64,000 bases of DNA from Ectocarpus siliculosus (taxonomy: Eukaryota; Sar; Phaeophyceae; Ectocarpales; Ectocarpaceae): assembly GCA_000310025.1 (NCBI GenBank), contig FN648443.1, forward strand, positions 1 through 64,000, written 5' to 3'. The translations under genes and the position numbers were made by a program. The notes under the pieces were generated by a model. It saw nothing but the letters and a program-made list of their open reading frames with translations, searched no databases and was not told where the DNA came from. Each line of letters starts with the position of its first letter. Position 1 is the first letter of the stretch. Positions 1 through 57,651 of the stretch are shown one piece after another.

Positions 1-799
1 CTATGTTCCAATCCACCGCTACACCACGATCACCACTTCTTCCTCTTCTCCCGCGCGGAATCCTTTCCGTGCTCATTCTTCCCTGAACACTCCACCCAGA
101 TATTGTTGGTCTGTGCCTCACTCGTGAGGTGGCTGCCGAACGTCGAGCCGAATGACGCGTTTCCGGCAACACCCATTCAGATGCCCGGTACACTGCTTCC
201 AGGCTCTTCCGTTCCAGTGCAGTTAAAAACGCGTATCTACAAAATTTATTACAGGTTGTCGCCTCTCTAGCTTCAGGTCTCCCAGCAGGAAGGCAGGGAG
301 AGGCCCAAACAGCTCAAACCATCGAATTCCTCTTTGCTAGCCCCGCTCATGTGGGAGCGTTGTTTCAGTTTCGATTCTCTATAATTATCCGGGCGGCAAT
401 ATAGGAAGTCCGGAGAAAACTGGCCACAAAGTCGACCATCCAATTCCCTGGCATGCGTATACTACCTACACGTTGGAGAACACTCACTCCCAGCCCTTGC
501 CGGATCACGTTTAACGACGATATTTTATATTTTCAATGGGTGCTAATCCTGCCGCACGCCTCAGCGGGGGGGTCATGGTCTCTCGATGGACTGCACAATC
601 ACATCCAACGCCCTGCGTCACCCAGCTCAGTAATCTTCGGCTCAAATTGTACTTCGCGTATGAGAATAATCGGTACAAAAGGGAGGGGGAAAGTGTGAAC
701 TCGTTAACCCTTATCCGAACACCTTAAACGCAAGGAACCCAGCCCCAGGCCTGCATATCGACACTGCTACCTATGTGTGTGTCCTCATATCGAAACCAA

Positions 800-3700
800 C
801 TACTGTCCCTCCTGTGGGGGTGGGGAGCCCATCATGGCCTTCATATTCTCTCTTTTCACCCTCACGTTCTTGAAGCGGTCCGTGTTGAGGAAGCGGAGGA
901 CCAGGTTGGCTTCCAGCATATTCTTAACGTCCCGATACGCTCGCGAAAATATCATCCTGAAAGTCGTGATTGAGTTTCGAGGTGTACACGTTGTGGTTTG
1001 GCGGGGGCGGCAGGAGGTGGGGAGTGTTCATATGTCTATCGGCTAGCTTGGCCATGGCCGCTACACCTAGCCCTGTCAGACGAGCACACGGATCTATATG
1101 AATCCTGGGCTTCGGGGTTGGGCGCCGCCTTCACATCCAATAGAACCTCCTTCACACGCATTGTCCCGATGCTACAGTAGTGGGTCACACCGCCGAAGAA
1201 CAAGACATATTCCTACATGAAGGGGGTTTCGTGCGCTGCAATGTGCTCTCGAAATTTACGTGAAAGTGAAATACACCGCCAATGAAGGCAACAATCATGA
1301 AATATCTCTAGCGGGTATATACTCGCACAAACGTCGGCACGAGCACTCGTGTGTTGAACACGTTTTTTTTCCCGCCGCATCTCTCCACGTTCACCTTCTC
1401 TCCTCCACGTTGACATCATCGAATAATTCTTCGCCGTTGTTGTACAGATCGAGTATCAGTCTCATCCCCGTTTCGCTTAAATATGAGAGAACAACGAAAC
1501 GAGCATGTAACGCAAAAAAACGGCCCTAGGTCACATCACAACGAACGGCAGGCCGCAGCCAATCAGCCAGCAGCAGGCAGTCGGTACAGCCACAGGCAAA
1601 CAACCTGAATCCCGGAACCTTGATCTTGTCGAGAGAAAATTATGGCGTTTTTCGCGCAGCCTGATAGAAACTGTGTCCACCTCAGACTGGTGTGAGGCTT
1701 GTAGCCTGCAGTTTTGAAACTCCACGTACGTGCTCGTACAAAATCGAACAAGACATTCATACATACTGAGACATAACAATGAGCGCCAAGTACATCCAGA
1801 CGCATCGCATGAAGCGCTGGATCAATCTGCACCCAGCCTTCCCTCGACCCTCGACACCGCCCCTCGAGAACGCCGTGTCCAACATAGCTTGAGTTCAACC
1901 ACCGCTTCCACTCCAGCATCACACTTGACCAGATAAGGGATTGAACCCTTACAGATATCTAACATGGAACGCTGTGTTTTGAGTCGTGCTCGTCAGTCTC
2001 TGCTACACCTCACCTTATGTTTACTTCCTCAGATGAGCCGGCCTTGATGAAGGTATCCGTGATATAGCAGAACGAACCAAACTGAATTCTCGGAGATGAA
2101 GCGGAAGATGCTCTTGTCGGCATGGGGTAGTTATTGTTCTGGTACCTGACGCGGGAAAGAGACAAAACAAGGTCATGGGCGGCGATTTTGCGACAAAAGA
2201 GTTTATAAGTTGGGGCGGACCTCAACTTTGGCGTTTCTGCAGTATACCTTACCCGATACGGTATGAGTACTTGTTCCAAATATCGAGCACGGACAACCAA
2301 CCATATACAGCCGCGGTGACAATACTCCACAGACGATATGAAAGTTTTAGGGGCTCTCGGATTTCGTTTCGCAGAGTTGTATGCAACAAAGAAACGTCCC
2401 CACAATGCTTGCAACGCACGAGCCTCTTTACAGGCCCAGGCGATACGTTCGGTCGCACATTGTGAATCGCATGCACATCTCCCCGCTACACAGAGAACGC
2501 GACAGGGCGCGCGGAAATGCGGCCGTGTACAAACACGTGCCTTAGCGCGCAGACCGTTGTTACGTCGGCGAGAAGGGCGTTGGTATTTCACGACAAAGAA
2601 GGCTTTGCTCTTCACATGCTTGAAAATCTCTCTGATCTCAGGGGCAGGAACGTGATGCCAGCAACAACCTTATAGCGGAACCGAGTGCAGTTCGCAGCCT
2701 CCTACACAGGAAACCCTAGTGGCAAAGCTGGAACGGCCAACTCATTGTTTCCACATCAACTCTACTCTTGCGACGGCGGTTTCAAGCAACCGCTCCTCGC
2801 CTCGAGATGGGAAGGGACAAGACTATGGCCTCGTAACTGTTTGGGGGCATCAACCGTTAACGGTGGAAGAGCACTCCTCACCGACTCAAAATGGTTGGAG
2901 GAACTCCCGCTAACATCATCCAAATCCACGACTACAGAGACCGCAGGGAACGATCGAAGACACCGTACGCCTTCGACAGTCGGAAGACAGGGGTATCACA
3001 CGGAAGGGCGCAGAAACCCTTCGTTCACTGGCTGCGGTGTACGAAGGTATCCAATCCACAACAAATGTATCGGAAACCACGGCACAAACAAGATGGCGGA
3101 ATGAGCAATATGCGCCGAACACCATGCATACCACCATATCAATCCTGATTCCTCTCATAAGCGACAGTAAATGGTCCCTGATTAGTGGCGGCATGTGCCT
3201 GCCGAAACTTCGGCACTATACCGGGCACAGGCGCTATTCAATCGACATTCCGGAGGGACCATTGCTGCAAGTATCTGCCCATCTATTTCCCTCGGTCCTT
3301 GGGCTTTACTCACGCTCAGAAAGAGCACCGACTCGTGGCAAAGCGCCCTCTTAGAATAGTCCTCGAACGCGGCGGCCAACAGGGGCGTACTCGCAATCCG
3401 CTCGAAGTCCCACACCTCCATCTCCTCTCTATCCGAACGACTTCGACTACTACAACCGCGGTCTCGGCCGCTGCCCCTCGCTCTCTGCACCCTCTGGAAA
3501 GCGCCACGCCTGCCGCGGGTGCTGTTGTCGTTGGATACGGAAGACGATCCCTCCGCAACGACGGAGGAATTGGTTGGTTCCCGCTCGTTCCACGTACAGG
3601 GGGCGACGGCACCGTCGGCGTCGGCGGTGGATGCCGTAGTCGCACCCCTGCCAATGGTGGCTGAGGTGGGGACATCGCCAGTGTCACCATCTCCTCCTGC

Positions 3701-5867
3701 TGCTGTTGTTGTGTCCTTGCCCGGGACTCCTTCACGCTCTCCTTCTTCGAGTCTGGCTTCCTCTTCGCTGTCGCCACGTGTCCGTTGCGAGCCGCCGCCT
3801 ATGACTGACGAAAACCCTAATTCTCGTCTCACCGAGCTATTGCGGAATTCGTGAGGGGGGAAGGGGGAACGGGGGGTTGCGCTCATGCGCTATTTATCAT
3901 TGACGGTTTTGGTAACGTTCACGCATTGCTACAAGGCGGAGAACTGCTCCTACTCATAGTCTACGACAGAGAAACGTCGATAACTCCGGAAATGGCCCGA
4001 CCCCTTCAGTGTCCGTCAGATGATCGCAGCTTCCGTCCATCTCCCTAGGATGGCTTGGACGTCACGCCTCTTACGGTCACTTCCACGATCCCTTACGAGA
4101 CACCCTGTCTCCTCCTAGACTTCCCGTAGTCGATCAAGGATTCAACTCTCCCCTGCCTTGAAAAAGGCATTCATCTGCGCGCCTTTCTCTGTTCTGCGCA
4201 CGTATTGGCACTGGGGGAGAGGGAATCTCAAATCCTCAGATGTGAGTACCCTAGACCCAGGGAAGGTGGTTTGGCTAAAACGTCAACGGCAAACCTACGA
4301 TGCCCATGCACGAGGACTCGAACAACACAATATCTGAACCAGAGCAAACATCTAGCGATTGTAACCAGAGCGGTACGTAGCCTTTACATGCACGCTTACG
4401 ACGCCACCGGGCACGCAAGAGAGGACGTGCGTCGGTGTCTGTTTCTCCTCTGGTTTTTATTCTCCCACAGTTTGTGCTTCGCTCACTTGTGGGGTTCCGT
4501 GCGGCTGAGGAGAATGCGATTGGCGTGGTTGTGCTGGGTTGCCGCCAAAGGGTCGAACGCTAGGCGTCGCAGCGGGTCCACAATACTGCGCAAAGGTTGG
4601 TTGAGGACACCGCATGGAAACTATCTTCGTAAACGGTACGTGCCGTCAACGAGGTTAGTGACCCAAGCGTCGAAGAGCAAGAAATCACGACGAAACGGCG
4701 TTCAAGTCAGCACGTGTCGAGCAGTCACGCTCGCCCTTCGGCTACTGCTTGGAGAATTTGACATCAGTCCTTACTGATTCTCGCCCGCTCAATCTTTTCA
4801 TTTTTCAAGATAACTAATGAGGGTGTGGACGGATCATTTGTTTTTTATAAACCACAAACTCTAGTCCAAACGTCGACACACAGGCCCTGTCGGCGAAGCG
4901 AAATTCTGTGCAGAGGATCAACTATGCAGACAAACGCACTTGTCTGATCGACCCAAGACAATTTTTCTCCCTCAGACGGACGGCGAGCAGACACACACCT
5001 GACGCCGAAGAGCACCGCCACAAACAAGATGGACACGCTTTTATCAATCCATCTCCGCTCGTAGACCCCTCCCAACTTGTCGACGACGTTCTGCTCAACT
5101 GTTGCGGTTAGTATCGAGGGTGCAGACGAGGGAAGGAGAGAACTACGGTGGTGAGGGGAAAAACGCAAAAGCGCCGGCACAACCTCGGCAGTTGCGAAAT
5201 CGGGCAAAACAGCAAGCGGTTCTCCGCCGTCCAGGGATGAGATGCATGCGATGAGAGTAGCTGCGGACTCCAAATACTATCCCCGTGTGAGCATTGCTCA
5301 CGTTGGATCATTTAGAACGGCCTCTCTGACAGCTGCAGGCTGTTTAGGTCTCGAAAAGAAGGTTTTCGACACACGCACCCGAAAAAAAATGTAATATACA
5401 AACCAATCGTGCACACCTGCGTTTAGGTGCACCAGAAACAATGAGCTACACGTCGGATGTACGTTTGGGCATGCAAGCGTACTGCAGGGATTGTAGGTGT
5501 GCCTCTTCGGGCTTGCGTACCCTTTTCATGCTAAGTGTGCGTGTTCCATTGGTCTTCTGGTGGCTCTGTCATTTTTGTGACGACGGACCGAGTCTTTGCT
5601 AGATTTGGGGTTAGCAACTGACATACGAGTTGAATGTGAAGACAACAAAACGACAGCAACACGACGGATACTGGACGAGGCTGTCCACACCGGCTTTCGT
5701 GGGCCTCACTTGCGAGGATCACGACGGCCGCGGTGACGATGATGAGCTCCTTGCTGATGCTGAAAAGATCGTCAACGTTCCTGATGAGAGGGAAAATGCA
5801 AGCCAGCACCACCGCGACCGCGCTTAAGTGCGTCGTCCGGATAGTAGCCTGCATCGGAACGGCCTCC
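800..5867 (-). pseudogene. 7TM-RGS gene A1, 5'-truncated and frameshifted
   Basis: Regulator of G-protein signalling gene, copy A1. Recognisable exons on the minus strand, using the exon numbers of intact paralog B2: E5 5710-5867 (TM5-TM6), E6 4999-5098 (TM7), E7 4487-4585, E8 3314-3836 (linker and RGS start), E9 2014-2145, E10 1395-1475, E11 800-956 (RGS end and stop). All junctions are GT-AG. E8 is 523 nt where A2 and A3 have 534: an 11-base deletion removes the last codons (EVSR in A2/A3) yet leaves a GTGAGT donor at the new edge, so joining to E9 shifts frame inside the RGS fold. Exons 1-4 are absent: a deletion at about 8812 removed TM2-TM4, and a LINE lies where intron 4 should be. E5-E7 and E9-E11 are open. 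Probably a non-functional relic. The exon model is inferred by comparison and has no transcript support. Confidence 0.8.
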
Positions 5868-6022
5868 CTGGGTGGGCACAGGAACGGGGGGGACGCGCCG
5901 AGAAAGACCAACGGCAAATGCCAATCGTCAAGACACGAACGATGACGGTCTACGCCGTTCACACCGTCATACGCGAATGTCCAAAGAGCGGAGGGTACAA
6001 GGCTACAGCGCCACGATTGGAG

Positions 6023-8620
6023 GTTTGTTGTTGTTGTTGTTGTTGTTGTTGTCTTCACATTAAAAACCGTTCCGGTCTTTCTCTACCCAGTACCTTCGTA
6101 TGTCCGTACTGATCCAACACTCGACGCGGTCGATTCCCGTGGTCACAGGTTAACTTTCCCTGAAAAGGTACACTCAAATAAACTGGCCCCGAGGGGTCCG
6201 CAAGTCAATAGAAATCAACGACAGATATTCTGGAATCCTCCACTCCCTCTTCGCGCTATGCGAGGTATCAACTGAGGCTAGCAGTCACTATCTATCATGG
6301 GCCGGAGAGAAAGAGGTACACCTCCTTGGTTCAATCTTGGTACTTCACAACGCGAGCAGAGACAAGGCCATCTGGCACAGAAAAAGCGAGAAAAAAAGAG
6401 AGAAAAAAGAGAGAAAAAAGAGAAAAAATAAAAATGGAAACCGTAAGGAGAAGAGAAAATAAATGAAAATAAAATGAAAAAGGGCGAGGACAAAGAGGGA
6501 CCAGGCCGAAAATAACAAGAAGTATGAGGCAGAACAAGGCACATGGTGGAGAGACCACTAACGAACAAGCAAACACGCAAACATGGCAACCAACCAGCCA
6601 TACACTGTAATGGTACGAAATCACTACTGAGGGGTTGGTGCAATGGTGCAGCGTTGGAGGGGGGGGAATTGGCTAAAAGAAATTCAATCCGGCACGTGTC
6701 GTGCCACTCGGTCCGCCTCTTCTCGTTTGCTTTCTTCCCTCGCCGTCTCGTCCGTCTCCTGCCCCCCTCCCGCCCCATTGGTTGTTGGCTTGTGGTTTCG
6801 TTCGAGCGCTCGTTGTCGGCTGGCCTCTTCTTCCTTCTCGTGCCAGGAGGTCATGAACCTCTCATCTCCCTGCAGCACCGCCGCATGCCAGGGTACTCCC
6901 CCCTCCACCTTCGCGGCTTCCGTCCACTTTAACTTCGGTGACGTGTCTTTCGGTACGGGAATTCCGAGACAACATGGGTCGGTTTTCGTAGATCCGTGGT
7001 CGGCCCCGAATGCCTTCAGGTCGTCGAGCACACACTTCGGCCAGTTCTGTTCCTGTCCCCCCTTACGTGGCTTCTCCCCCCCCGCCAGCTCGCCGAGCAT
7101 CAGTCGTTTCGGGAGTCGCCCGTCCGGCTGCCTTGCCAGTGCTCCCGCGGACAGTAGGCGTCGTTGTCGGATCGTGGCTTCAACGCTCTGGCATTCGACC
7201 CTCTTCAGCGTCTGGGCGTACGAGAGCTGCTGGTAGGTGTCTTTCTTGCGCTTGTACCCGATAACTCGAAGGAGCAGTCGGTGGTGTGTCGACCGCAGCG
7301 TCTGATAGTGGCCGCTGAGTGGTGACCATGTCATGCAGCCGTACAGCAGTGCCTCCATCGCCTCCGCCTGGAGGAGGCAGATCTTGAGTCGGAATGGCGC
7401 TTTCGGTCTGTCGAAGAGCTCCTGGCCATATCGCCTGAGGCACGCCCACGCTCCTCTGCTCCTGTAGCTGATCTCCCGGGTGAGGTCGCCATGTTCGTTG
7501 ACGAGGCCACCGAGGTACCGGAACTCGGTCGTCTGGGCGTATTTCTGTCCCGCGGCTTCGATGGTCAGTGGTGGAGGAGGCGGGGGGGGCTGTGATGCTG
7601 TAGTCGGCTTGTCCTTCGCGCGCATCAGGAGCGTCTCCGTCTTCTTCTCCTACACCGTTAGCCCGAACTCTCCGAACACCTCAACGATGATGGTCATCAT
7701 TCTCGCCAGTCCTTCTGCAGACCTCGATACGACGCCGGCATCATCGGCATACGGCATCCCCCATAGTGCTCTCCGTACTCGGTCAAGGGGTGTCTCCTCC
7801 CCCCCCCCCGCTTCCGTCTTCCCCTTCTCCAAGCACACCAGATTCCGCGGAACAACATCATCCTCGGTGAATCGGATAACGACGACCTCGAGGACCTCGG
7901 CGAAGAAGATGCTGAACAGCAGTGGGGATACCACACATCCTTGTCGCACGCCCTGTGTGACGAAGAACCAGTCCGATAGTTCTCCGTCGTCTATGCGCAC
8001 CCGGGCCCGCATTCCATCGTGGAATTGGCGAATGACTTTGATTAGCTTCGCGGGAATCCCGGCCCTGGCCAGCACCTTCCATAGCATCTCTCGGTCCACC
8101 GAGTCATACGCCTTCTTCAAGTGGACGAAGCACATGTAGAGCGGTGTTTTCTTTATCCGCCCCAGCTCCTGGAGGCGGCGCACGACCAACAGCATGTCGA
8201 CGGTGGATCGCCCGGGTCGAAATCCGCACTGTTCCTCCGGGAGGATGTTGTCGGCTTCGCAGAAGGCGCTTAGACGGTTGGTGATGATCTTGATGGGGGC
8301 CTTGCCTACGTGAGATAGTAGCGAAATCCCCCTGTAGTTGTTACAGTTGGACCGGCCACCTTTCTTGTACAGCACCTTGATGGTTGCGTCCTTCCACTCG
8401 TGGGGGATATCTCCTCCGTTCCACACCTTGACGAGGATGGTATGGAGGTGTCTCAGGACAACGGGTTCGTCGTCATCGATCTTGAGCAACTCGGCAGGGA
8501 GGGAGTCATGGCCGGGTGCCTTCCAGTTCTTAAGGCCTTTCGCTGCCCGTGCCACCTCCTCGAGGTCTGGCACCTCTCCCAACCGTTGAGTGTCACGTGT
8601 CGCTGGCCGCTGCGTCAGAG
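6023..8620 (-). mobile_element. 5'-truncated non-LTR retrotransposon (LINE)
   Basis: A LINE inserted in gene A, in antisense to the window and in the same orientation as the gene. R3 has the empty site (gene sequence runs from GATTGGAG straight into CTTTACGCA near 51900). The 3' end is a (CAA)n tail, seen as TTG repeats at 6024-6053. About 630 bp of untranslated 3' region follows the coding part, and the 5' end is cut off inside the reverse transcriptase. A short GAG is shared by both flanks and may be the target duplication, but it is too short to be sure. The element is also present, further truncated, in R2. Confidence 0.85.
6684..8620 (-). pseudogene. LINE reverse transcriptase ORF2 remnant, inactive
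   Basis: Reverse transcriptase plus C-terminal region of a non-LTR element. RT landmarks in order: KNWKAPGHDSLPAELLK near the start, NNYRGISLLS, GFRPGRST, the motif-A segment LKKAYDSVDRE, GVRQGCVVSPLLF, and the catalytic YADD at about 7740. After YADD the same frame continues to 6684 with the thumb and C-terminal part (RYLGGLVNE, WSPLSGHY). Two lesions are visible. The motif-A aspartate codon is CAC (His) at 8121-8123 where the R2 copy has GAC (Asp), and an in-frame TAG at 7650-7652 separates RT from the C-terminal 314 residues. The apparent start ATG at 8630 lies in flanking DNA, so the true N-terminus is missing. No endonuclease domain remains. Confidence 0.88.
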
Positions 8621-8827
8621 GTTTACGCATTGCCCATTGAGAACACGACGACGAAACTCGTCGTCACATCAATGAACTTCTGGAGCGGCTTGCGGTATGG
8701 ATTAATTTCCAACTCTTGGGTGTGGAACATCACCTGCAACGGTATGACCGGGGTTGTTTTCTCGTTCGTAACGCGTTCTACATCTCACTGTGTCTCCAAG
8801 GTGTACTCGTGATAACCGCGGAGCACA

Positions 8828-8839
8828 TTTCGCGCGAAA
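8828..8839. promoter_or_regulatory. Palindromic E2F-like site TTTCGCGCGAAA
   Basis: Twelve-base perfect palindrome, retained at 29587-29598 and 53732-53743. It reads as two overlapping copies of TTTCGCGC, which fits the known E2F/DP consensus TTTSSCGC. Binding is untested, and the R1/R2 deletion junction sits only ~15 bp away. Confidence 0.35.
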
Positions 8840-9071
8840 CCCAATACCCTGACTCTCTCTGTTTCCACAGAACACTCGAAAAAACTCTCAATCAAGCGTG
8901 TGCCTCACGGGGGGTTGGCGCGATTGAATTGGGTAGCCGCGAAGCAGTTCAAATCCTGATTATTTCTTCAAATTCTCTAGAAAACACGGTGTGTACTACG
9001 TATTATCTTCTCTACCCTACAGCCGTCACTTACTCGCCGTCACGGTTAAATATTTCCCGTATGTGTTGGTG

Positions 9072-9089
9072 TATACTTCCGGAAGTATA
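9072..9089. promoter_or_regulatory. 18-bp perfect palindrome TATACTTCCGGAAGTATA
   Basis: Conserved unchanged in all three copies (also 29831-29848 and 53981-53998) in the divergent A/B intergenic region. It could be a dimeric transcription-factor site. No matching factor is claimed. Confidence 0.4.
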
Positions 9090-9495
9090 TATGCATACAG
9101 TACACGGGCCCGCAGAGAGATAAGAAACAAACGTCCAAATCGGGCCGAGGCTCAGTAACTCATTTCATCGGCATTCATTGTCGAGCACAGTTTATCTAGT
9201 ACGAAGTATTGGTAGAGTTTAGTGTAGGATAAATCCTCCGCGAGCTGTGTAGCTATTACGTCTTCTTCGACCTATTTTGTTCACTTTGTTCGTGAAAGTT
9301 TAGCCTCTCTGTTTCTCCACGAAATATTCCTAACTGCCGGGCAGAACGCTACAGAATATATGTATCTGTTGTTGTTTCACAATTTATCCAGCATCCGAAC
9401 CCGGTGTGTCGATAGACTTTTCAGCGGAAATACTCGAAGTCATAACGAAATAACAACCAGGCTGCCGGGATATCATATTTATTTACTATTTGGTG

Positions 9496-9513
9496 TTTAC
9501 CGCGCGCGGTAAA
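9496..9513. promoter_or_regulatory. 18-bp perfect palindrome TTTACCGCGCGCGGTAAA
   Basis: Conserved unchanged in all three copies (also 30255-30272 and 54423-54440), about 1.3-1.9 kb upstream of the B start codon. The GC core with AT arms looks like a dimer-binding site. Function is not known. Confidence 0.4.
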
Positions 9514-15500: not shown

Positions 15501-15514
15501 GCGTGATTCTCAGA

Positions 15515-19349: not shown

Positions 19350-19405
19350 CTGCGTACTGTACTGAGCTCTGCGTACTGTATTCAGCTCCGCGTACTCAGC
19401 TCTGT
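19350..19405. repeat. Short tandem repeat, ~19-bp unit
   Basis: Three imperfect units of about 19 bp built on CTGCGTACTGTACTGAGCT, the third shortened, in intron 8 of B1. The same array is at about 40768-40823 in B2. No function is suggested. Confidence 0.6.
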
Positions 19406-21699: not shown

Positions 21700-21703
<4 letters not shown>

Positions 21704-21746
<43 letters not shown>

Positions 21747-21748
21747 GG
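21704..21748. repeat. (GA)n microsatellite followed by poly-G
   Basis: GA dinucleotide run ending in a G run. In R2 the equivalent GA tract is longer and carries an inserted inverted-repeat element (43179-43370). Confidence 0.9.
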
Positions 21749-22084
21749 AGAACACCTAGCGACGCTCCTTGAAGCTGGACTGAAGGGCCAGCAGGACTTT
21801 GTTGTACTCCAACTTGGACGCGTGTTGTTCGGGTGGAGGTAATTGGTTCGACGTCCTCCGCAGTTCGTGATGCATGTGTGGCGGAGCTGCTTCAGGCTGG
21901 GCGGATTTCCAGAAACTCGTAACGTTCCAAGTGGTACCAGCGAGGGCGGGAGAGCTTCGTTGGTTGTACTATTCTAGCCAAAGCAGGACATTCGTTTTCA
22001 TGCAGGTGGGAACACAGGGAGGGGTTATTTGCAGGGGCACTCAGATGTAGCGCGGCTGTTCGGTTTTTCTCACGCTACCACGAC

Positions 22085-42724: not shown

Positions 42725-43109
42725 GCGTGATCTTTATATCTAGACAAGCTCAATGATAACGCGGGCTGGATTCCTTTGCGGGTTGGGATGGCACGGTAGG
42801 TTTGTCGGAGTACGGTTACTTTTTGCAGATGTGGGGACAAATTCAAGCGGAACGCACTTCGAGCGGACCTGTATCACCACCGACAATTTTTCGTGGAGCG
42901 TGAAAAGGCAGGGGGCGGCGAGTGGGTTTTCCAGCTTGCGTGTAGATTGATGCGAGGGGATTGAATAGTTGATCTTGACGCCATCCTCCCAGGCCTTCCT
43001 TCAGACGCCCGGGTCAATGCCAATCGACAGTGCAATGGACCACTCGCATTGGCGGGTGTGTGTGCTGAGGAGTTGGTTGTTTTCAAGAGAAGCCGCGCGA
43101 GAGAGAGGG

Positions 43110-43121
43110 GGGTAAGAGAGA

Positions 43122-43178
<57 letters not shown>
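43110..43178. repeat. (GA)n microsatellite
   Basis: Nearly pure GA run of about 69 bp, longer than in R1, and the target of the neighbouring inverted-repeat insertion. Confidence 0.92.
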
Positions 43179-43183
<5 letters not shown>

Positions 43184-43370
43184 GATAAAATTACACCATT
43201 TGATCAGTCCGACGCTCACTAACCTGCATGGCCCCCTTCTAACNNNNNNNNNNNNNNNNNNNNNNNNNNNNNNNNNNNNNNNNNNNNNNNNNNNNNNNNN
43301 NNNNNNNNNNNNNNNNNNNNNNNNNNNNNNNNNNNNNNNNNNNGATCAGATGGTCTAATTTTATCTAATA
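43179..43370. mobile_element. Inverted-repeat element of the TATTAGATAAAATTA family, with gap
   Basis: Left end TATTAGATAAAATTACACC, right end the complement of TATTAGATAAAATTAGACC, matching the outer ends of the two foldback elements. It is inserted in the GA tract; GAGAG on each side agrees with the 5-bp duplication of that family but cannot be distinguished from the microsatellite. The interior is 100 N (43244-43343). Confidence 0.75.
43244..43343. other. Assembly gap (100 N)
   Basis: Fixed-size run of N inside an inverted-repeat element; the real length is unknown. Confidence 0.97.
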
Positions 43371-46300: not shown

Positions 46301-46705
46301 GCGGCAATAGGAAGTCCGGAGAAAACTGGCCACAAAGTCGACCATCCAATTCCCTGGCATGCGTATACTACCTACACGTTGGAGAACACTCACTCCCAGC
46401 CCTTGCCGGATCACGTTTAACGACGATATTTTATATTTTCAATGGGTGCTAATCCTGCCGCACGCCTCAGCGGGGGGGTCATGGTCTCTCGATGGACTGC
46501 ACAATCACATCCAACGCCCTGCGTCACCCAGCTCAGTAATCTTCGGCTCAAATTGTACTTCGCGTATGAGAATAATCGGTACAAAAGGGAGGGGGAAAGT
46601 GTGAACTCGTTAACCCTTATCCGAACACCTTAAACGCAAGGAACCCAGCCCCAGGCCTGCATATCGACACTGCTACCTATGTGTGTGTCCTCATATCGAA
46701 ACCAA

Positions 46706-49700
46706 CTACTGTCCCTCCTGTGGGGGTGGGGAGCCCATCATGGCCTTCATATTCTCTCTTTGCACCCTCACGTTCTTGAAGCGGTCCGTGTTGAGGAAGC
46801 GGAGGACCAGGTTGGCTTCCAGCATATTCTTAACGTCCCGATACGCTCGCGAAAATATCATCCTGAAAGTCGTGATTGAGTTTCGAGGTGTACACGTTGT
46901 GGTTTGGCGGGGGCGGCAGGAGGTGGGGAGTGTTCATATGTCTATCGGCTAGCTTGGCCATGGCCGCTACACCTAGCCCTGTCAGACGAGCACACGGATC
47001 TATATGAATCCTGGGCTTCGGGGTTGGGCGCCGCCTTCACATCCAATAGAACCTCCTTCACACGCATTGTCCCGATGCTACAGTAGTGGGTCACACCGCC
47101 GAAGAACAAGACATATTCCTACATGAAGTGGGTTTCGTGCGCTGCAATGTGCTCTCGAAATTTACGTGAAAGTGAGATACACCGCCAATGAAGGCAACAA
47201 TCATGAAATATCTCTAGCGGGTATATACTCGCACAAACGTCGGCACGAGCACTCGTGTGTTGAACACGTTTTTTTTCCCGCCGCATCTCTCCACGTTCAC
47301 CTTCTCTCCTCCTCGTTGACATCATCGAATAATTCTTCGCCGTTGTTGTACAGATCGAGTATCAGTCTCATCCCCGTTTCGCTTAAATACGAGAGAACAA
47401 CGAAACGAGCATGTAACGCAAAAAAACGGCCCTAGGTCACGTCACAACGAACGGCAGGCCGCAGCCAATCAGCCAGCAGCAGGCAGTCGGTACAGCCACA
47501 GGCAAACAACCTGAATCCCGGAACCTTGATCTTGTCGAGAGAAAATTATGGCGTTTTTCGCGCAGCCTGATAGAAACTGTGTCCACCTCAGACTGGTGTG
47601 AGGCTTGTAGCCTGCAGTTTTGAAACTCCACGTACGTGCTCGTACAAAATCGAACAAGACATTCATACATACTGAGACATAACAAGGAGCGCCAAGTACA
47701 TCCAGACGCATCGCATGAAGCGCTGGATCAATCTGCACCCAGCCTTCCCTCGACCCTCGACACCGCCCCTCGAGAACGCCGTGTCCAACATAGCTTGAGT
47801 TCAACCACCGCTTCCACTCCAGCATCACACTTGATCAGATAAGGGATTGAACCTTTACAGATATCTAACATGGAACGCTGTGTTTTGAGTCGTGCTCGTC
47901 AGTCTCTGCTACACCTCACCTTATGTTTACTTCCTCAGATGAGCCGGCCTTGATGAAGGTATCCGTGATATAGCAGAACGAACCAAACTGAATTCTCGGA
48001 GATGAAGCGGAAGATGCTCTTGTCGGCATGGGGTAGTTATTGTTCTGGTACCTGACGCGGGAAAGAGACAAAACAAGGTCATGGGCGGCGATTTTGCGAC
48101 AATAGAGTTTATAAGTTCGGGCGGACCTCAACTTTGGCGTTTCTGCAGTATACCTTACCCGATACGGTATGAGTACTTGTTCCAAACATCGAGCACGGAC
48201 AACCAACCATATGCAGCCGCGGTGACAATACTCCACAGACGATATGAAAGTTTTAGGGGCTCTCGGATTTCGTTTCGCAGAGTTGTATGCAACAAAGAAA
48301 CGTCCCTACAATGCCTGCAACGCACGAGCCTCTTTACAGGCCCAGGCGATACGTTCGGTCGCACATTGTGAATCGCATGCACATCTCCCCGCTACACAGA
48401 GAACGCGACAGGGCGCGCGGAAATGCGGCCGTGTACAAACACGTGCCTTAGCGCGCAGACCGTTGTTACGTCGGCGAGAAGGGCGTTAGTATTTTCACAT
48501 GCTTGAAAATCTCTCTGATCTCAGGGGCAGGAACGTGATGCCAGCAACAACCTTATAGCGGAGTCGAGTGCAGTGCGCAACCTCCTACACAGGAAACCCT
48601 AGTGGCAAAGCTGGAATGGCCAACTCATTGTTTCCACATCAACTCTACTCTTGCGACGGCGGTTTCAAGCAACCGCTCCTCGCCTCGAGATGGGAAGGGA
48701 CAAGACTATGGCCTCGTAACCGTTTGGGGGCATCAACCGTTAACGGTGGAAGAGCACTCCTCACCGACTCGAAATGGTTGGAGGAACTCTACGCTAACAT
48801 CATCCAAATCCACGACTACAGAGACCGCAGGGAACGATCGAAGACACCGTACGCCTTCGATAGTCGGAAGACAGGGGTATCACACGGAAGGGCGCAGAAA
48901 CCCTTCGTTCACTGGCTGCGGTGTACGAAGGTATCCAATCCACAACAAATGTATCGGAAAACACGGGCACAAACAAGATGGCGGAATGAGCAATATGCGC
49001 CGAACACCATGCATACCACCATATCAATCCTGATTCCTCTCATAAGCCACAGTAAATGGTCCCTGATTAGTGGCGGCATGTGCCTGCCGAAACTTTGGCA
49101 CTATACCGGGCACAGGCGCTATTCAATCGACATTCCGGAGGGACCATTGCTGCAAGTATCTGCCCATCTATTTCCCTCGGTCCTTGGGCTTTACTCACCG
49201 AGAAACCTCGCTCAGAAAGAGCACCGACTCGTGGCAAAGCGCCCTCTTAGAATAGTCCTCGAACGCGGCGGCCAACAGGGGCGTACTCGCAATCCGCTCG
49301 AAGTCCCACACCTCCATCTCCTCCCTATCCGAACGACTTCGACTACTACAACCGCGGTCTCGGCCGCTGCCCCTCGCTCTCTGCACCCTCTGGAAAGCGC
49401 CACGCCTGCCGCGGGTGCTGTTGTCGTTGGATACGGAAGACGATCCCTCCGCAACGACGGAGGAATTGGTTGGTTCCCGCTCGTTCCACGTACAGGGGGC
49501 GACGGCACCGTCGGCGTCGGCGGTGGGTGCCGTAGTCGCACCCCTGCCAATGGCGGCCGAGGTGGGGACATCGCCAGTGTCACCATCTCCTCCTGCTGCT
49601 GTTGTTGTGTCCTTGCCCGGGACTCCTTCACGCTGTCCTTCTTCGAGTCTGGCTTCCTCTTCGCTGTCGCCACGTGTCCGTTGCGAGCCGCCGCCTATGA

Positions 49701-52700
49701 CTGACGAAAACCCTAATTCTCGTCTCACCGAGCTATTGCGGAATTCGTGAGGGGGGAAGGGGGAACGGGGGGTTGCGCTCATGCGCTATTTATCATTGAC
49801 GGTTTTGGTAACGTTCACGCATTGCTACAAGGCGGAGAACTGCTCCTACTCATAGTCTACGACAGAGAAACGTCGATAACTCCGGAAATGGCCCGACCCC
49901 TTCAGTGTCCGTCAGATGATCGCAGCCTCCGTCCATCTCCCTAGGATGGCTTGGACGTCACGCCTCTTACGGTCACTTCCACGATCCCTTACGAGACACC
50001 CTGTCTCCTCCTAGACTTCCCGTAGTCGATCAAGGATTCAACTCTCCCCTGCCTTGAAAAAGGCATTCATCTGCGCGCCTTTCTCTGTTCTGCGCACGTA
50101 TTGGCACTGGGGGAGAGGGAATCTCAAATCCTCAGATGTGAGTACGCTAGACCCAGGGAAGGTGGTTTGGCTAAAACGTCAACGGCAAACCTACGATGCC
50201 CATGCACGAGGACTCGAACAACACAATATCTGAACCAGAGCAAACATCTAGCGATTGTAACCAGAGCGCTACGTAGCCTTTACATGCACGCTTACGACGC
50301 CACCGGGCACGCAAGAGAGGACGTACGTCGGTGTCTGTTTCTCCTCTGGTTTTTATTCTCCCACAGTTTGTGCTTCGCTCACTTGTGGGGTTCCGTGCGG
50401 CTGAGGAGAATGCGATTGGCGTGGTTGTGCTGGGTTGCCGCCAAAGGGTCGAACGCTAGGCGTCGCAGCGGGTCCACAATACTGCGCAAAGGTTGGTTGA
50501 GGACACCGCATGGAAACTATCTTCGTAAACGGTACGTGCCGTCAACGAGGTTAGTGACCCAAGCGTCGAAGAGCAAGAAATCACGACGAAACGGCGTTCA
50601 AGTCAGCACGTGTCGAGCAGTCACGCTCGCCCTTCGGCTACTGCTTGGAGAATTTGACATCAGTCCTTACTGATTCTCGCCCGCTCAATCTTTTCATTTT
50701 TCAAGATAACTAATCAGGGTGTGGACGGATCATATGTTTTTTATAAACCACAAACTCTAATCCAAACGTCGACACACAGGCCCTGTCGGCGAAGCGAAAT
50801 TCCGCGCAGAGGATCAACTATGGAGACAAACGCACTTGTCTGATCGACCCAAGACAATTTTTCTCCCTCAGACGGACGGCGAGCAGACACACACCTGACG
50901 CCGAAGAGCACCGCCACAAACAAGATGGACACGCTTTTATCAATCCATCTCCGCTCGTAGACCCCTCCCCACTTGTCGACGACGTTCTGCTCAACTGTTG
51001 CGGTTAGTATCGAGGGTGCAGACGAGGAACGAGATAACGACGGTGGTAACGGGGAAAACGCAAAAGCACCGCCACAACCTCGGCAGTTGCGAAATCGGGC
51101 AAAACAGCAAGCGGTTCTCCGCCGTCCAGGGATGAGATGCATGCGATGAGAGTAGCTGCAGACTCCAAATACTATCCCCGTGTGAGCATTGCTCACGTTG
51201 GATCATTTCGAACGGCCTCTCTGACAGCTGCAGGCTGTTTAGGTCTCGAAAAGAAGGTTTTCGAAACACGCACCCGAAAAATATATAAACCAATCGTGCG
51301 CACCTGCGTTTAGGTACACCAAAAACAATGAGCTACACGTCGGATCTACGTTTGGGCATGCAAGCGTACTGCAGGGATTGTAGGTGTGCCTCTTCGGGCT
51401 TGCGTACCCTTTTCTAAGTGTGCGTGTTCTATCGATCTTCTGTTGGCTCTGGCAGTTTTGTGACGACGGACCGAGTCTTTGCAAGATTTGGGATTAGCAA
51501 GTGACATACGAGTTGAATGTGAAGACAACAAAACGACAACAACATGACGGATACTGGACGAGGCTGTCCACACCGGTTTTCGTGGGCCTCACTTGCGAGG
51601 ATCACGACGGCCGCGGTGACGATGATGATCTCCTTGCTGATGCTGAAAAGATCGTCAACGTTCCTGATGAAAGGGAAAGTGCAAGCCAGCGCCACCGCGA
51701 ACGCGCTTAAGTCGTCGTCCGGATAGTAGCCTGCATCGGAACGGCCTCCCTGGGTGGGCAGGAACGGGGGGGACGCGCCGAGAAAGACCAACGGCAAATG
51801 CCAATCGTCAAGACACGAACGATGACGGTCTACGCCGTTCACACCGTCATACGCGAATGTCCAAAGGGCGGAGGGTACAAGGCTACAGCGCCACGATTGG
51901 AGCTTTACGCAGTGCCCATTGAGAACACGACGACGCAACTCGTCGTCACATCAATGAACTTCTGGAGCGGCTTGCGGTATGGATTAATTTCCAACTCTTG
52001 GGTGTGGAACATCACCTGCAACGGTATGACCGGGGCTGTTTTCTCGTTCGTAACGCGTTCTACATCTCACTGTGTCTCCAAGGTGTACTCGTGATAGATG
52101 GGGATTGCCTACATTCCCACACTTGCTACCAGCAGCGCCGCCATGTAGTTGCGCTCCTGTCGTCCAAGAGTGGAGGAAACACGTGCATAGGGGCACAGCA
52201 GACACACAGCGAGAGAGAAATACATCGAAAGCAGAATGAAAGAGGGGCGCGGCACGCGGGCACGGAGGGGGAGCAGTTCAAGAAACGGCCAGAGACCGTG
52301 GCGAGAGAGAGGGCGCTAGCTGGGGTTGTGAGTGGCATATGTTGCCAATGTTACCTGGGATTCGACCGTGCTTGGGGCGAGGAATGGCGCGCGCAGAGTC
52401 AAACAAAGCAACAACGATGGAACTGCTGGCTGCGTCGAAAACGAAATTGAACAGGCGTGCGTAGAAAGGAAAATAGAACAGACGTGCGCAGATAAAACAT
52501 ACAACACACACGCTGACGTGGAGCACTACACGTCCTCGTACACGAAAACATGCTACCATACGCGTAGTCCCACTTGATCCAAAGCCACAAAATTCGAAGA
52601 CTTGTACCGGGATGAGCCACGGTAGGGCACGCTTCGCCCTCGGATGGAAAACCACGGCCAGGCGGAGCACGCGGCAGATATAGCTCCCCAACAGCGTGGG

Positions 52701-52836
52701 CACGACCAAGAAGAGTAGCAGAGATACCCAGAAATAGTCGAGCCCGCAGTCCCAGACGACGTTAATGGAACTGTTGAGGGTGACGAGCATCGTCAGGAGC
52801 GCGCAGACGCCTTCGACCATGACCAGATACGCAGAC
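46706..52836 (-). pseudogene. 7TM-RGS gene A3, nonsense and frameshift in TM exons
   Basis: Most complete A copy. Minus-strand exons: E3 52608-52836 (TM2-TM3), E4 52071-52156 (TM4), E5 51593-51749 (TM5-TM6), E6 50895-50994 (TM7), E7 50383-50481, E8 49199-49732 (linker, RGS start), E9 47920-48051, E10 47301-47381, E11 46706-46862. Lengths equal those of B2 except E8 and E11, which differ in frame, and E5, which is 157 nt instead of 158. Lesions: TAG at 52109-52111 in TM4 where B1/B2 have TTG (Leu), and the one-base loss near 51712 in E5 relative to A1 and B. Exons for the N-terminus and TM1 are not recognisable upstream. The RGS exons are open and end FLNTDRFKNV before the stop. The gene lacks the LINE found in A1/A2, so it shows the pre-insertion structure. 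Confidence 0.8.
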
Positions 52837-53717
52837 CTGGCCATGTGGTATGCGATGCAGTGAAGCTCCCGGTGTGATTGCGGTTTCATACTCACGTAGC
52901 GCCAGGAGATCTTTCCAACTGCTATTCATCAAGGCGTCGCCACTAAACCCTCTTTTAGCGGTTGGTTTATAGCAGTTAAACCGGGGCCTCAATACAGGTC
53001 GACAATGTCCTAATTAACCGGGACACGGCCCCAAGTTTGCGGAACAAGAGCCGCGTCGTAAAGCTCGTCTTGATATATGTCTCGTCGCAGCAGTGACGAG
53101 CTCACTTTAGGCAGAAAAAGTTTTGTCGAGGACGATTCCCAATTTCACTTTGGCGTCGCGATAAGATGTAGCCTTGCGTAATCACAGATTTTCTATTACC
53201 ACGCACAGAACATTGTGGAGAGGTGAATCGCCGCCAGCCGGTCGGGTTAAGTCAACTTAAAGAGGGGGAGATGCAGATCTCCTTCTACACAAAGCGAAAA
53301 TCTCCCAACGTCTGTCGAGGACGATTCCCTCTCTTCACATGAATGTGATACTCTCTCTTGGGGCGCACCGCCACTAGCTGCGACAGGTTCGAATGCTGAT
53401 GGACGAATCGGTACGGGGGGTTCCTGGGTTGAACAAGGAGGTATGTAGGTTTGAAGCTAGCTGTTGTGCGACTGAAAAACCGCGTGCGTTCGTGCGAACG
53501 TCTCTCTCGCATGGTCGAAAAGTGTCGTAAGACATTGGGCAGCTGAGAGTTTGGGCGCAAACGGGGGCTTTTTTCTTTCTAGTTGTCTGAGTTGGTTTTG
53601 CCATCAGTTAAAGCTATTATGAATCTGCCCACATATACTCTACTGCAGTTTTTTTCCATGGAAAAGCTGCCCTTTGTTGTCACCCAAATCGCTGCCACCG
53701 CCGTGTGGCTTCTCGTT
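52837..53717. other. R3-only stretch upstream of A3 exon 3
   Basis: Sequence deleted from R1 and R2 together with exons 3-4. The first ~65 bp resemble the intron 2 end of gene B. Beyond that I see no TM1 exon and no start codon in a convincing context. The word GTCGAGGACGATTCCC occurs near 53125 and 53315, so part of this is repeat-like. The A promoter may lie here or beyond. Confidence 0.5.
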
Positions 53718-55798
53718 AACCGCGGAGCACATTTCGCGCGAAACCCAATACCCTGACTCTCTCTGTTTCCACAGAACACTCGAAAAAACTCTCAATCAAG
53801 CGTGTGCCTCACGGGGGGTTGGCGCGATTGAATTGGGTAGCCGCGAAGCAGTTCAAATCCTGATTGTCTCTTCAAATTCTCTAGAAAACATGGTGTGTAT
53901 TCTTCTACGTATTATTTTCTCTACCCTACAGCCGTCACTTACTTGCCGTCACGGTTAAATATTTCCCGTATGTGTTGGTGTATACTTCCGGAAGTATATA
54001 TGCATACAGTACACGGGCCCGCAGAGAGATAAGAAACAAACGTCCAAATCGGGCCGAGGCTCAGTAACTTATTTCATCGGCATTCATTGTCGAGCACAGT
54101 TTATCTAGTACGAAGTATTGGAAGAGTTTAGTGTAGGATCCATCCTCCGTGAGCTGTGTATAGCTACTACGTCTTCTTCGACCTTTTTTCTTCACTTTCT
54201 TCGTGAAATTTGAGCCTCTCTGTTTCTCCACGAAATATTCCTAACTGCGGGGCAGTACGCTACAGAATATATGTATCTGTAGACTACTGCTGTATGTTGT
54301 TGTTCCACAATTTATCCAGCATCCGAACCCGGTGTGTCGATAGACTTTTCAGCGGAAATACTCGGAGTAATAACGAAATAACAACCAGGCTGCCGGGATA
54401 TCATATTTTTTACTGTTTGGTGTTTACCGCGCGCGGTAAACGACACCTACACTCCTCCTGCAGTCGGGAGCCGAGGGGCTGCAACAGGTGAACATGAGTG
54501 GTAAGACTCAAGAAGTTGTGTTGGTTTGGTGTGAGGGGTGACAGGATTGATTGATGATGTGCTGTACATACATACATACCACTATTTGATGCATGCATTC
54601 ACGTGGCTTGCTTATTGTGGCACACCTTCGACATTGCGAAATTGCCTACCGTACGCAGTGATATGCATAGCGTCTCAGCGACTCTACCTCGTGCACGACC
54701 TCTGGTACCTGATATGGTAGAAGCAGACGCACGTATACAACAAGCAGTCTCTGGGTCTATTGTAGTCTACTTCTTCACATGCCCACGGAGTCGGGTGGGA
54801 AGGCACGCGAGAGTCTTTCGGCAATTCAGGCCAAGCTTTGCCACGTTGCCACGTTGTCACGGTACGTTGCCACGTTGCAAAGGATGCCCACGTTTCCAAG
54901 AGTGCCCATCCACATGGATTGGTCACAGAACGAAAAAAATGAGGTTGTTTCGGGTCTTCCCCGTGCCATTTCACCACTCACTCAAGACTCACTCTACATT
55001 TATTTTGTGTTATTCAGGCAGGGTGTACGTGCAAGGCGATGGGAGAATATAACCAAGGAAAGAACAAAGGACAGCAGCAGCAACAACCGCTACATCTGTG
55101 GTCGGGGCCAATTTCCACACAGCTTCGAGGTGATTTATTGTATGTAGTGAAAAGAGTTGCATCACATTATACCGGTTGATGTTTTGCCAGGATACCGTTG
55201 GGTTGCGTAAGATACCACATGCATGCCCTGGACATATTGTCAAACCTCGATTACTCTGCAGTGAAACAAAAGCCGGTGCCGAAAACGACTGCGTTAGAAC
55301 GTTGGGATTGCTGTCTCGTCGAGGGGTTCCGAAACCATGTCTTTTGAATGCGGCATCCTCTCCGTCATGTACGGGACCAGAAAATGTGTACATGTGTGCA
55401 TACTAGGTTCTACAGCAAAATAACGGTGACACAAGTTCTACGGTTCGTTTTTGTATTGCTTAGATATATGCTACGTTGGTACTGGCGTGGGTAGGTGCTT
55501 GGAGTAGGCCAAGATCGCCGTTAGGTGGTGAAGCGGCCTCCGTGCACATTTTGTGGATCGGCGGGACTGTCCACGACGCACGAATCGGCGGGATTGGGTG
55601 CATCCGTTCTTTTTTTTTATTGTGCGTCATGCCTGGTCAGCAGCTGGTTACTTGCTGCTGTTCGCCCGCACTTGTGGACAGCTACTGCTGCAGGTCGGAT
55701 CGCAGCTTGCTCAGACCTGAGGCGAACAAGGCAGAGGCAGTTGCAAGAGAAGGCATATCACACCAACCTTCGCTGGTGACCCACCCTCTTCGATTGAT
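53718..55798. promoter_or_regulatory. Intergenic region upstream of B3 exon 1
   Basis: Equivalent of 8816-10859 without the R2 insertions. It keeps the palindromes at 53732-53743, 53981-53998 and 54423-54440. No gene is supported. Confidence 0.4.
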
Positions 55799-55949
55799 AT
55801 GGAGAGGTCTAGCAGAAGTGCTGCGGGTAGTTCCTTTGATGATACGGGTGGTCCTGGAACGTCAACTTCTTGGGAGCAACATTATGGTGATGGGGATATC
55901 GATCTCGACCTGTCAAGCTTGACGCCGAGCTACACACGCACGGACAAGG
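55799..55949 (+). pseudogene. 7TM-RGS gene B3, exon 1 only
   Basis: A 151-nt first exon starting ATG and ending before GTGAGT, matching exon 1 of B1 and B2 with two or three substitutions (for example D for G at residue 15). Downstream the copy is hit by an 811-bp inverted-repeat element at 56680 and then ends at 57531, before exon 2, so the rest of the gene is absent from this window. Confidence 0.78.
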
Positions 55950-56679
55950 GTGAGTCAGAGAGAGGGCACAGGGAGGGAGATGCACAATAGCGCCATTGTC
56001 TTGTGTCCTCAGCGGTGATATCGTAAAGCACTTGATACACGGGTAATCGCGTTGTTTTTTTTGCTTCGTATATGTCCGCTGTTGCTGTGTCCTACACTGA
56101 GAGACTGAGAGTCAAGTTTCAACAACACGGTTGTGGCAGGGGTAATCCGCAGAAATCCGTTTGGTATACATACACAGCAAGCAAGCGCGATAGACTATTT
56201 TCCTCGAGCATGCCCAGACCTCAACGCCCCTTGCCCATGTCACTCCTCTGTCCTGGCTTCCGACTTCAATCCCTCTCGAGAGTCTTTGCCTTCAGGCTCT
56301 AGACATGCTTGTCGCAGCGTTGCAGCAACCCTTGTGCATACAATCCCTGAAGTTTAGGGAGCAAAAAAAACGGATTTATATTCCGACGTCAACTCCGAGT
56401 GACCAAGAGTTTACTTTCTCAAAAAGAGACGGAGAGATGGACAGAGCGGTAGAGAGCAGTAGAGACCATCAAGAGAGTGATACACACACGTACTTCAACA
56501 ACTTGTCGGCCACGTTTGTTTCTATCGGTCACCGCACACACGTTGTAACCAACGCTGCTGTCTCATAACGAGTTGCGTCTCGCTGCCTCTTTCGTACCTA
56601 CACAATACAGGAGCTGATACACAGCAGTAGTCTATGAACAACCCTCTGAAAAACCTGAGTGAGAAAAGAAGATGGTCAC

Positions 56680-57490
56680 AGGGTCGTTCTTAACGAAGAA
56701 ATCAGATCTCGAAATCACATTTGGATATAAGAATAAAAGAGTCGGATCTACCCAAATCCGGACAGAAATGGCATGTGTGTCGTAACGGAAGATGTGCCAA
56801 ATGGAAACGAATCTCTGCAGTTCACCACGAACAACCCGAGAGGACCGCCGCTTGCCAACTGCCAGATTACGTTTGTGACATACTGCTATGGCGTTGCCAC
56901 ACCACATGGGGAGCTATCGCTCCCGAGAAGCACACACCAAACGCGTACATGGCCTCTGTGCGGTACTGACACGATTTCTATGGATGTGACACTTTGAATC
57001 GACCCTCGTCCGACGGAAAGCCGCCAATTCATCTGTGCATTTGAAGTTCGACAACCCACGGGAGATTGCCCCACAGACCAACACATCCCACACACGTTTT
57101 TCTTCGGGGCCAGTCACGTGCAACAACGATGCGCAGTCACCCTCCCTTTAGGTTGACTTTTTGTGCTCTTTCTTTCCTCTGTGCTGGTCGGTGGATGGGG
57201 TTCGTGTGGATGGGGGTAGGTGGGCACGCGCCGTGTATGCGAGTAGACCGTGGTCCCGCAACTATGGACGCTGTTCACCCAAATCGGGATCCGATTAAAT
57301 GATTTCACCTTTTTTCAAATCCCGATTTGGTTTTGGGTCGTCCTGTTATAAGTCCTATAGATTCGACGGGTTCCATAACATTTCAGCCAATCAACGAAAG
57401 AGTTCTGTGGATCGTCCGGTCTTATAACCAAATCTTATAACCAATCTGAATATGATTTCGAGATCTGATTTCTTCGTTAAGACCGACCCT
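56680..57490. mobile_element. Non-autonomous inverted-repeat transposon, 811 bp
   Basis: Terminal inverted repeats of about 41 bp, beginning AGGGTCGKTCTTAACGAAG (K = T left, G right), matching at all but about two positions. R1 and R2 have uninterrupted sequence here. No clear target duplication: left flank GGTCAC, right flank CGTGCATA. No transposase ORF is present. Confidence 0.82.
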
Positions 57491-57651
57491 CGTGCATATG
57501 CATGACTATGGATACCAAGATGACAAATAACAGTTATTTCATTTATCTTTTTCCTAGAATCGCAGCATTTTCTCCGGGCCGGGAAACAAACGCTCTTTCG
57601 AGCGCTCTCAGGGCACCACGCTTATTCACTTGGTTTCAGAGTGCAGTCCGG

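What the first reader, a model, noticed from the sequence alone, without database searches (positions are those of the whole stretch)
1..57531. Three tandem copies of a segment carrying divergent 7TM-RGS gene pairs
The same 22-24 kb unit occurs three times head to tail, each with a minus-strand A gene and a plus-strand B gene of the same exon design. A and B are themselves diverged paralogs, so an old inverted duplication was followed by recent amplification of the pair. Local expansion of a G-protein regulator family is unusual and may be ongoing.
Basis: partly seen in the sequence, partly recalled or inferred. Interest (0 to 1): 0.75.

Follow-up and report, generated by a model that had tools for sequence, protein, structure and literature searches.

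The report
Recombining 7TM-RGS gene array, half decayed
In a eukaryote (possibly a brown alga), a stretch carrying a membrane-sensor gene that should switch off G proteins has been copied head-to-tail several times, but only one of the two gene types in the repeat still has intact copies, so it looks like a gene-copying hotspot rather than a set of working gene pairs.

Summary
The repeat is real: units start at window 1, 24233 and 45908, matching blocks are 93-99% identical. B encodes a 7TM-RGS protein: 11 exons with consistent phases, seven hydrophobic segments, a Pfam RGS domain above cut-off. "Three A/B pairs" needs correcting. The window starts contig C68, whose first 896 bases equal at 100% the last bases before an N run in C26. 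Joined, the array reads B0|A1 B1|A2 B2|A3 B3|A4. B0 and B2 are open, B1 has a 1-bp frameshift, B3 lacks an exon, and 4 of 4 A copies are broken. A4 keeps exon N2 beyond a breakpoint shared by the units; no N2 was found for A1-A3; B0 alone shows the left breakpoint. So the duplicated segment was most likely a convergent B-A pair cut inside A's intron; the "divergent pair" is a product of the junction. Older full-length relatives (C, D) lie beside it; A is not shown to be B's sister. Site patterns among the B copies switch in long runs (0 of 100000 shuffles as clustered), which indicates exchange between copies. Known kind of gene; moderate interest.

The parts
1..24232 (.). repeat unit 1 as framed from the contig start (A1 remnant, junction, B1, downstream flank)
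   Evidence: self-BLAST; first 896 bases identical to C26:4814199-4815094
24233..45907 (.). repeat unit 2 (A2 remnant, junction, B2)
45908..57531 (.). part of repeat unit 3 inside the finding (A3 remnant, junction, B3 exon N1); unit continues to about C68:83360
791..5867 (-). A1: exons b7 to b2b; 11 bp lost at the end of exon b4; no b1, only the last about 26 bp of b2a (near 8789-8814), no N1 or N2 found
6027..8617 (-). reverse-transcriptase element inserted in A1 (about 7 bp repeated at its ends by the alignment); its far part is also in A2 (28470-29376); absent from A3
   Evidence: (break in A1/A3 homology), RVT_1 96.4 bits in ORF 7653-8663
10064..10181 (.). unit 1 novel junction: 118 bp between the end of A4-type homology (10063) and the start of B0-type 5' flank (10182)
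10860..21318 (+). B1: 11 exons (N1 10860-11010, N2 11847-11952, b1 13632-13860, b2a 14777-14862, b2b 15185-15342, b3a 16933-17032, b3b 17465-17563, b4 18280-18817, b5 19965-20096, b6 20621-20701, b7 21153-21318); 1-bp insertion in b4
25020..28080 (-). A2: exons b7-b4 only
31174..31291 (.). unit 2 novel junction (118 bp; coordinates read off the alignment to unit 3)
32187..42724 (+). B2: 11-exon 7TM-RGS gene, open throughout, 613 aa
46697..52836 (-). A3: exons b7-b1; TAG in b2a, 1-bp deletion in b2b; no N1 or N2 found
55001..55118 (.). unit 3 novel junction (118 bp)
55799..55949 (+). B3 exon N1; exons N2 to b7 at C68:72174-80313, without b3a

Best explanation
A tandem gene array produced by duplication of one segment carrying a 7TM-RGS gene (B, plus strand) and a 5'-truncated neighbour (A, minus strand). 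Inferred history: an older cluster of plus-strand 7TM-RGS paralogs (E, C, D, F, B) was followed by one minus-strand paralog (A), convergent with B. A segment from B's 5' flank (C26:4798237) to A's intron between exons N2 and b1 (C68:93514) was duplicated in tandem, joining truncated A to B's 5' flank with a 118-bp filler. Unequal exchange multiplied and mixed the units; the first copy keeps B0's left flank and the last keeps A4's 5' side. The truncated A copies then decayed through insertions, deletions and nonsense changes, while B kept an open frame in two of four copies. B's product most likely sits in a membrane by seven helices and uses its C-terminal RGS domain to speed GTP hydrolysis by G-alpha (inferred from architecture), tuned by whatever the seven-helix part senses (unknown). 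Shown: copies, breakpoints, gene structure, decay, recombination signal, RGS domain. Inferred: the C26-C68 join, order of events, GAP activity, sensing.
For: Three units in the window plus one B on C26 and a terminal A in C68. Edge copies carry the two breakpoints: B0 homology starts at 4798237/55119; A4 homology ends at 93514/55000, and of the four A copies A4 alone shows exon N2, beyond that point. Overlap of 896 bp at 100% between C26's last bases before an N run and C68's start. 11 exons with consistent phases; B0, B2, C and D open over all 11. Seven hydrophobic segments at the threshold used. RGS 26.6 and 32.4 bits against a cut-off of 23.9. Between B0, C and D, dN/dS is 0.22-0.31 in RGS, 0.38-0.45 in 7TM and 0.80-1.26 in the linker. 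At aligned RGS4 positions, E87, N128 and R167 are kept in 4 of 4 rows, N88 is S and D163 is N (roles of these residues are recalled). 138 two-against-two sites among B0-B3 fall in 36 runs; 0 of 100000 shuffles had 36 or fewer. G-alpha exons over cut-off at five places; in the 14 control genomes 1 rang, 0 over cut-off.
Against: The N run in C26 is 21,926 long, far too short for the 217.7 kb of C68 if it is a measured gap; N may also stand for withheld DNA. The contig order is therefore inferred. The 118-bp filler matched neither flank compared. RGS similarity is weak: no PDB RGS chain is found by sequence or family profile, and hhalign to RGS4 gives probability 2.3%, E 0.02 for one comparison. 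Two of four B copies are also broken. Whole-gene dN/dS between B copies is 0.47-1.12 on few changes, so present constraint on the young copies is not shown. No expression data. The 7TM count rests on hydropathy alone.
Confidence: 0.75

Rival explanations
1. One reading: an old inverted duplication made a divergent A/B pair, and the working pair was then amplified.
For: A and B are on opposite strands with 5' ends facing each other in the window's units; about 64-82% DNA identity in matching blocks; A+B sisterhood is not rejected (AU p=0.37).
Against: A4 and B0 at the array edges show the facing 5' ends to be a junction product; no N2 found for A1-A3; 4 of 4 A copies broken; best tree groups A with C, weakly.
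Confidence: 0.1
2. Assembly or haplotype artefact: some units are alleles or misjoined repeats, so the true copy number is smaller.
For: Window starts at a contig end; N runs in or beside units; palindrome in B2's intron where B1 has a gap; N run in C26 disagrees with C68's length.
Against: Joins 1/2 and 2/3 lie within gap-free stretches; copy-specific insertions and deletions; 1-6% divergence between B copies; the 5.3 kb tested at C68:108721-114000 has no other match longer than about 0.7 kb among 40 of 383 candidates scored; four B copies exceed two alleles.
Confidence: 0.15
3. A copies are not dead but make shortened proteins carrying the RGS half only.
For: RGS exons of A2 and A3 hold no stop before the gene's own end; A3-B0 dN/dS in RGS is 0.26.
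Against: The low ratio may reflect the time before truncation; A1 lost 11 bp at the end of exon b4 and A4 lost the RGS half. A1-A3 differ by only 0-3 silent and 3-8 replacement changes per pair, too few to judge.
Confidence: 0.1

Closest known systems
Plant 7TM-RGS (AtRGS1)
   Same: seven hydrophobic helices followed by a C-terminal RGS domain; organism also has G-alpha genes
   Different: sequence link not tested here; long, fast-evolving linker; multi-copy tandem array. AtRGS1 description from passages of PMC3718340
Naegleria fowleri 7TM RGS proteins (28 members)
   Same: same fused design in a microbial eukaryote with a large family; GAP activity measured there for some RGS/G-alpha pairs and not others (passages of PMC9283941)
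   Different: several of those have long extracellular domains; the B protein has about 50 residues before TM1; genomic arrangement there not examined
Tandem duplicate gene arrays under unequal exchange and gene conversion
   Same: edge breakpoints, mosaic copies, pseudogene decay
   Different: nothing beyond the gene content (general knowledge, recalled)
Single RGS-containing GRK of Ectocarpus (brown alga)
   Same: an RGS-type protein reported from a brown alga (passages of PMC3307776)
   Different: kinase, not 7TM

Membership tests
RGS domain (PF00615) | profile match above curated cut-off over the whole domain | tested here: met
   26.6 (B2) and 32.4 bits (D), cut-off 23.9, profile 2-116 of 117; 2 of 2 proteins given
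RGS domain (PF00615) | G-alpha contact residues E87, N88, N128, D163, R167 of RGS4 (roles recalled) | tested here: inconclusive
   three of five kept in 4 of 4 rows (B0, C, D, A3), N88 to S and D163 to N
RGS domain (PF00615) | GAP activity on G-alpha | not testable with these tools
   needs protein
7TM-RGS proteins | seven transmembrane helices N-terminal to RGS | tested here: met
   seven non-overlapping 19-residue windows of 1.0 or more (Kyte-Doolittle, four-protein mean), none after residue 282; RGS from about 454. Hydropathy only; no fold was predicted
7TM-RGS proteins | homology of the 7TM part to AtRGS1 or Naegleria proteins | not tested
   those sequences were not fetched; Pfam lists no 7TM family at E up to 1
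7TM-RGS proteins | a G-alpha target in the same genome | tested here: met
   9 of 22 listed PF00503 matches over cut-off, on C3, C1, C19, C479 and C7; 14 control genomes: 1 rang, 0 over cut-off
Divergent (head-to-head) working gene pair | two intact genes with adjoining 5' ends | tested here: not met
   0 of 4 A copies intact; no N1/N2 found for A1-A3
Tandem segmental duplication | shared novel junction, with each ancestral flank kept at one edge copy only | tested here: met
   with the C26/C68 join inferred from an 896-bp overlap

The most novel reading that the evidence does not exclude
The array works as a small recombination nursery for G-protein sensors: exchange between units swaps the front half (N-terminus and TM1-3) against the RGS half, making new sensor-effector combinations while truncated A copies serve only as homology for pairing. 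The site pattern shows different copy relations in the front and back of the B genes.
Probability: 0.08. Interest if true: 0.65.

Novelty: new member of a known kind. Interest (0 to 1): 0.38.

Why it matters
7TM-RGS proteins let a G protein that activates itself be switched by a membrane sensor; they are described in plants, Naegleria and Trichomonas (passages). In nine searches of an open-licence paper library I saw no report of them from brown algae; most papers listed were not opened, and brown alga is my guess for this organism. A local, recombining cluster of such genes would let one test how such a lineage tunes G proteins, and it shows how a tandem duplication can make a misleading divergent gene pair.

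Tried and rejected
Rejected: divergent working pairs (A copies broken); chance repeats; RNA genes (0 Rfam matches at gathering score; 0 tRNA). PDB sequence searches gave no structural annotation (only mL53 and other unrelated proteins). The PF00615 genome search listed 3 matches of 22 candidates, over cut-off, on C15, C14 and C10; none in this cluster, because exons are scored apart.

Rows dropped before counting: for dN/dS and trees seven exon entries were left out for broken or unreliable frames (A1 b2a, A2 b2a, A4 b2a, A3 b2b, A1 b4, B1 b4, E b4), and F and Gg were left out altogether. The full tree has 11 rows, 4 of them over half gaps; the core tree 7; the AU test 5 (B0, B2, A3, C, D). 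The exon search found no b2a in A1 or A2 at 1e-4; the b2a rows listed for them are real only over their last about 26 bp. The mosaic test used five blocks that align in all four B copies, not the whole unit; blocks were chosen and 15 matches.

Full report
WHAT IS THERE. The window is G000:C68:1-64000, the start of a 217.7 kb contig of a 189.5 Mb genome searched as a eukaryote. Self-BLAST shows three head-to-tail units starting at 1, 24233 and 45908. Identity differs by part: 97.7% over A1/A3, 99.3% over parts of units 1/2, about 93% between unit 3 and the others in the 5' flank. N runs lie at 15805-16407, 43244-43343 and 62231-62330; the 1/2 and 2/3 joins are not in them.

BEYOND THE WINDOW. 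Searches of the own genome found more copies on C68 and on C26. I read C26:4733001-4843000 and C68 to 114000, plus C68's last 10 kb. C26:4814199-4815094 equals window 1-896 at 100%, and from 4815095 to 4837020 C26 reads N. Two sequence ends overlapping in this way suggest that C68 continues C26. Against this, the N run is 21.9 kb, much less than C68, and N may stand for withheld DNA; the join is inferred. The 5.3 kb tested at C68:108721-114000 has, besides itself, 41 listed matches, the longest about 0.7 kb at 69% (40 of 383 candidates scored), so that part is not a second version of another assembled region. With full-length paralog D as query, 72 of 72 listed matches lie at C26:4737-4838 kb or C68:0-94 kb (72 of 113 candidates were scored). 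Queries with the RGS part (54 matches) or the 7TM part (49) at E up to 1 add weak matches elsewhere, some near each other (C13, C24), which may be distant family members.

GENE MODEL. Comparing A, B, C and D gave 11 coding exons (N1, N2, b1, b2a, b2b, b3a, b3b, b4-b7) with GT-AG borders in B and phases that add up. B0 (C26:4798919-4810681, 614 aa) and B2 (window 32187-42724, 613 aa) are open throughout, as are C (C26:4759095-4771075) and D (C26:4775699-4783328); for C and D the start codon was not fixed. B1 has one extra T in exon b4, which could also be a sequence error. B3 lacks exon b3a and is out of frame after it; its first intron is about 16 kb against 0.8 kb in B1. E holds b4-b7 beside an N run, F only b6-b7 with damage, Gg one b1 exon and, by match, an N2 exon (C26:4838491-4838631) beside the C26 N run.

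A IS BROKEN IN ALL FOUR COPIES. A1 has no b1, only about the last 26 bp of b2a, and has lost 11 bp at the end of b4; A2 has b4-b7 and the same 26 bp of b2a; A3 has b1-b7 with TAG in b2a and a 1-bp loss in b2b; A4 (C68) has N2, b1 and the start of b2a, then a 7 kb stretch bounded by 320-bp repeats at 97% (83550-83869 and 90242-90561, LTR-like) in place of the rest. N2 was found in no A copy but A4. N1 was found in none, but N1 is poorly conserved. A1 carries a reverse-transcriptase element (RVT_1, 96.4 bits) of which A2 holds part, and both lack the sequence equivalent to 52097-53711.

THE BREAKPOINTS. A4 and A3 align up to 93514/55000; beyond that A4 continues into exon N2. B0 and unit 3 align from 4798237/55119 rightward only. 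The 118 bp between are shared by units 1, 2 and 3 and matched neither edge in the stretch compared. This is the pattern of a tandem duplication whose unit is [B, truncated A]: each edge copy keeps one original flank.

RELATIONSHIPS. Between B0, C, D and A3 dS is 0.36-0.45, dN 0.18-0.22 and dN/dS 0.45-0.58; among B0-B3 dS is 0.014-0.042 and dN/dS 0.47-1.12 on few changes. The tree gives B0,(B1,(B2,B3)) and places A with C weakly (UFBoot 59 in the full set, 67 in the core set); AU p-values for A+B, A+C and A+D are 0.37, 0.72 and 0.13. So an inverted A-B duplication is neither shown nor excluded.

EXCHANGE BETWEEN COPIES. Over five blocks aligned in B0-B3 (94.2-98.7% identity), 138 sites split the copies two against two: 31 as B0B1|B2B3, 30 as B0B2|B1B3, 77 as B0B3|B1B2. 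The last class fills the front of the gene and the first class becomes common towards the back. They form 36 runs; the lowest of 100000 shuffles had 60. Recombination or gene conversion among copies is the simple reading; it does not say when it last happened.

FUNCTION. RGS passes Pfam's cut-off (26.6 and 32.4 against 23.9), weakly. Seven hydrophobic segments precede it. Between B0, C and D, dN/dS is 0.22-0.31 in RGS, 0.38-0.45 in 7TM, 0.80-1.26 in the linker, so both domains were under constraint for most of that time. Aligned to RGS4, E87, N128 and R167 are kept and N88 and D163 are changed. The genome has G-alpha exons over cut-off at five places, 9 of 22 listed matches (14 control genomes: 1 rang, 0 over cut-off). 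I infer a membrane sensor with GAP activity. The link to RGS4 by hhalign alone is insignificant (probability 2.3%), and PDB sequence searches found no RGS chain.

LITERATURE. Passages of PMC3718340 describe plant 7TM-RGS and say none is found in sequenced green algae. Passages of PMC9283941 report 28 such proteins in Naegleria fowleri, with GAP activity for some RGS/G-alpha pairs tested, and mention Trichomonas; a multi-member family is therefore not unusual. Passages of PMC3307776 describe one GRK in Ectocarpus, and of PMC3727952 a complete RGS domain in one of four diatoms. A term search in PMC3386157 found none of the six terms tried (Ectocarpus, brown alga, stramenopile, oomycete, Phytophthora, protist). 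Searches 7TM-RGS with brown alga or Ectocarpus returned 0 papers; with algae 5, two looked into by term search; brown algae with RGS domain 2, one looked into; the others listed 1, 3, 15 of 30, 4 and 2, of which I looked into PMC3307776, PMC3727952, PMC9283941 and PMC3386157. Only an open-licence library was searched.

VERDICT. A real, recombining tandem array of 7TM-RGS genes, larger than reported, with B as the gene that still has open copies and A as truncated relics. Known kind of gene and known kind of duplication; the neat edge structure and the gene content give it moderate interest.

Noticed in passing
window 56680-57490: about 810-bp element with matching ends in opposite orientation (about 42 bp), at least 30 near-full copies (89-94%) across the genome (39 of 733 candidates scored); lies in B3's long first intron
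   Followed up: partly
window 23579-23833: 255-bp repeat with at least 30 copies at 92-95% in the genome (37 of 2915 candidates scored), at the end of unit 1
   Followed up: no
window 37648-38145: 498-bp imperfect palindrome (84%) in B2's intron b2b-b3a; B1 has its N gap near this place and B3 a deletion including exon b3a starting there, while B0 lacks the stretch
   Followed up: partly
window 57646-58334: 293-bp tandem repeat, 2.4 copies at 97%, similar to 62396-62796
   Followed up: no
C68:95930-98084: satellite-like array with a period of about 157 bp beyond A4 and before a 9.7 kb N run at 99047-108720
   Followed up: no
G000 C13:24-28 kb, C24:1589-1624 kb, C155:18-20 kb, C20:1177-1189 kb: weak RGS exon matches, on C13 and C24 with a weak 7TM match nearby (E 0.002-0.4): possible distant 7TM-RGS genes
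   Followed up: no
G000 C3, C1, C19, C479, C7: five places with G-alpha exons over Pfam's cut-off
   Followed up: no
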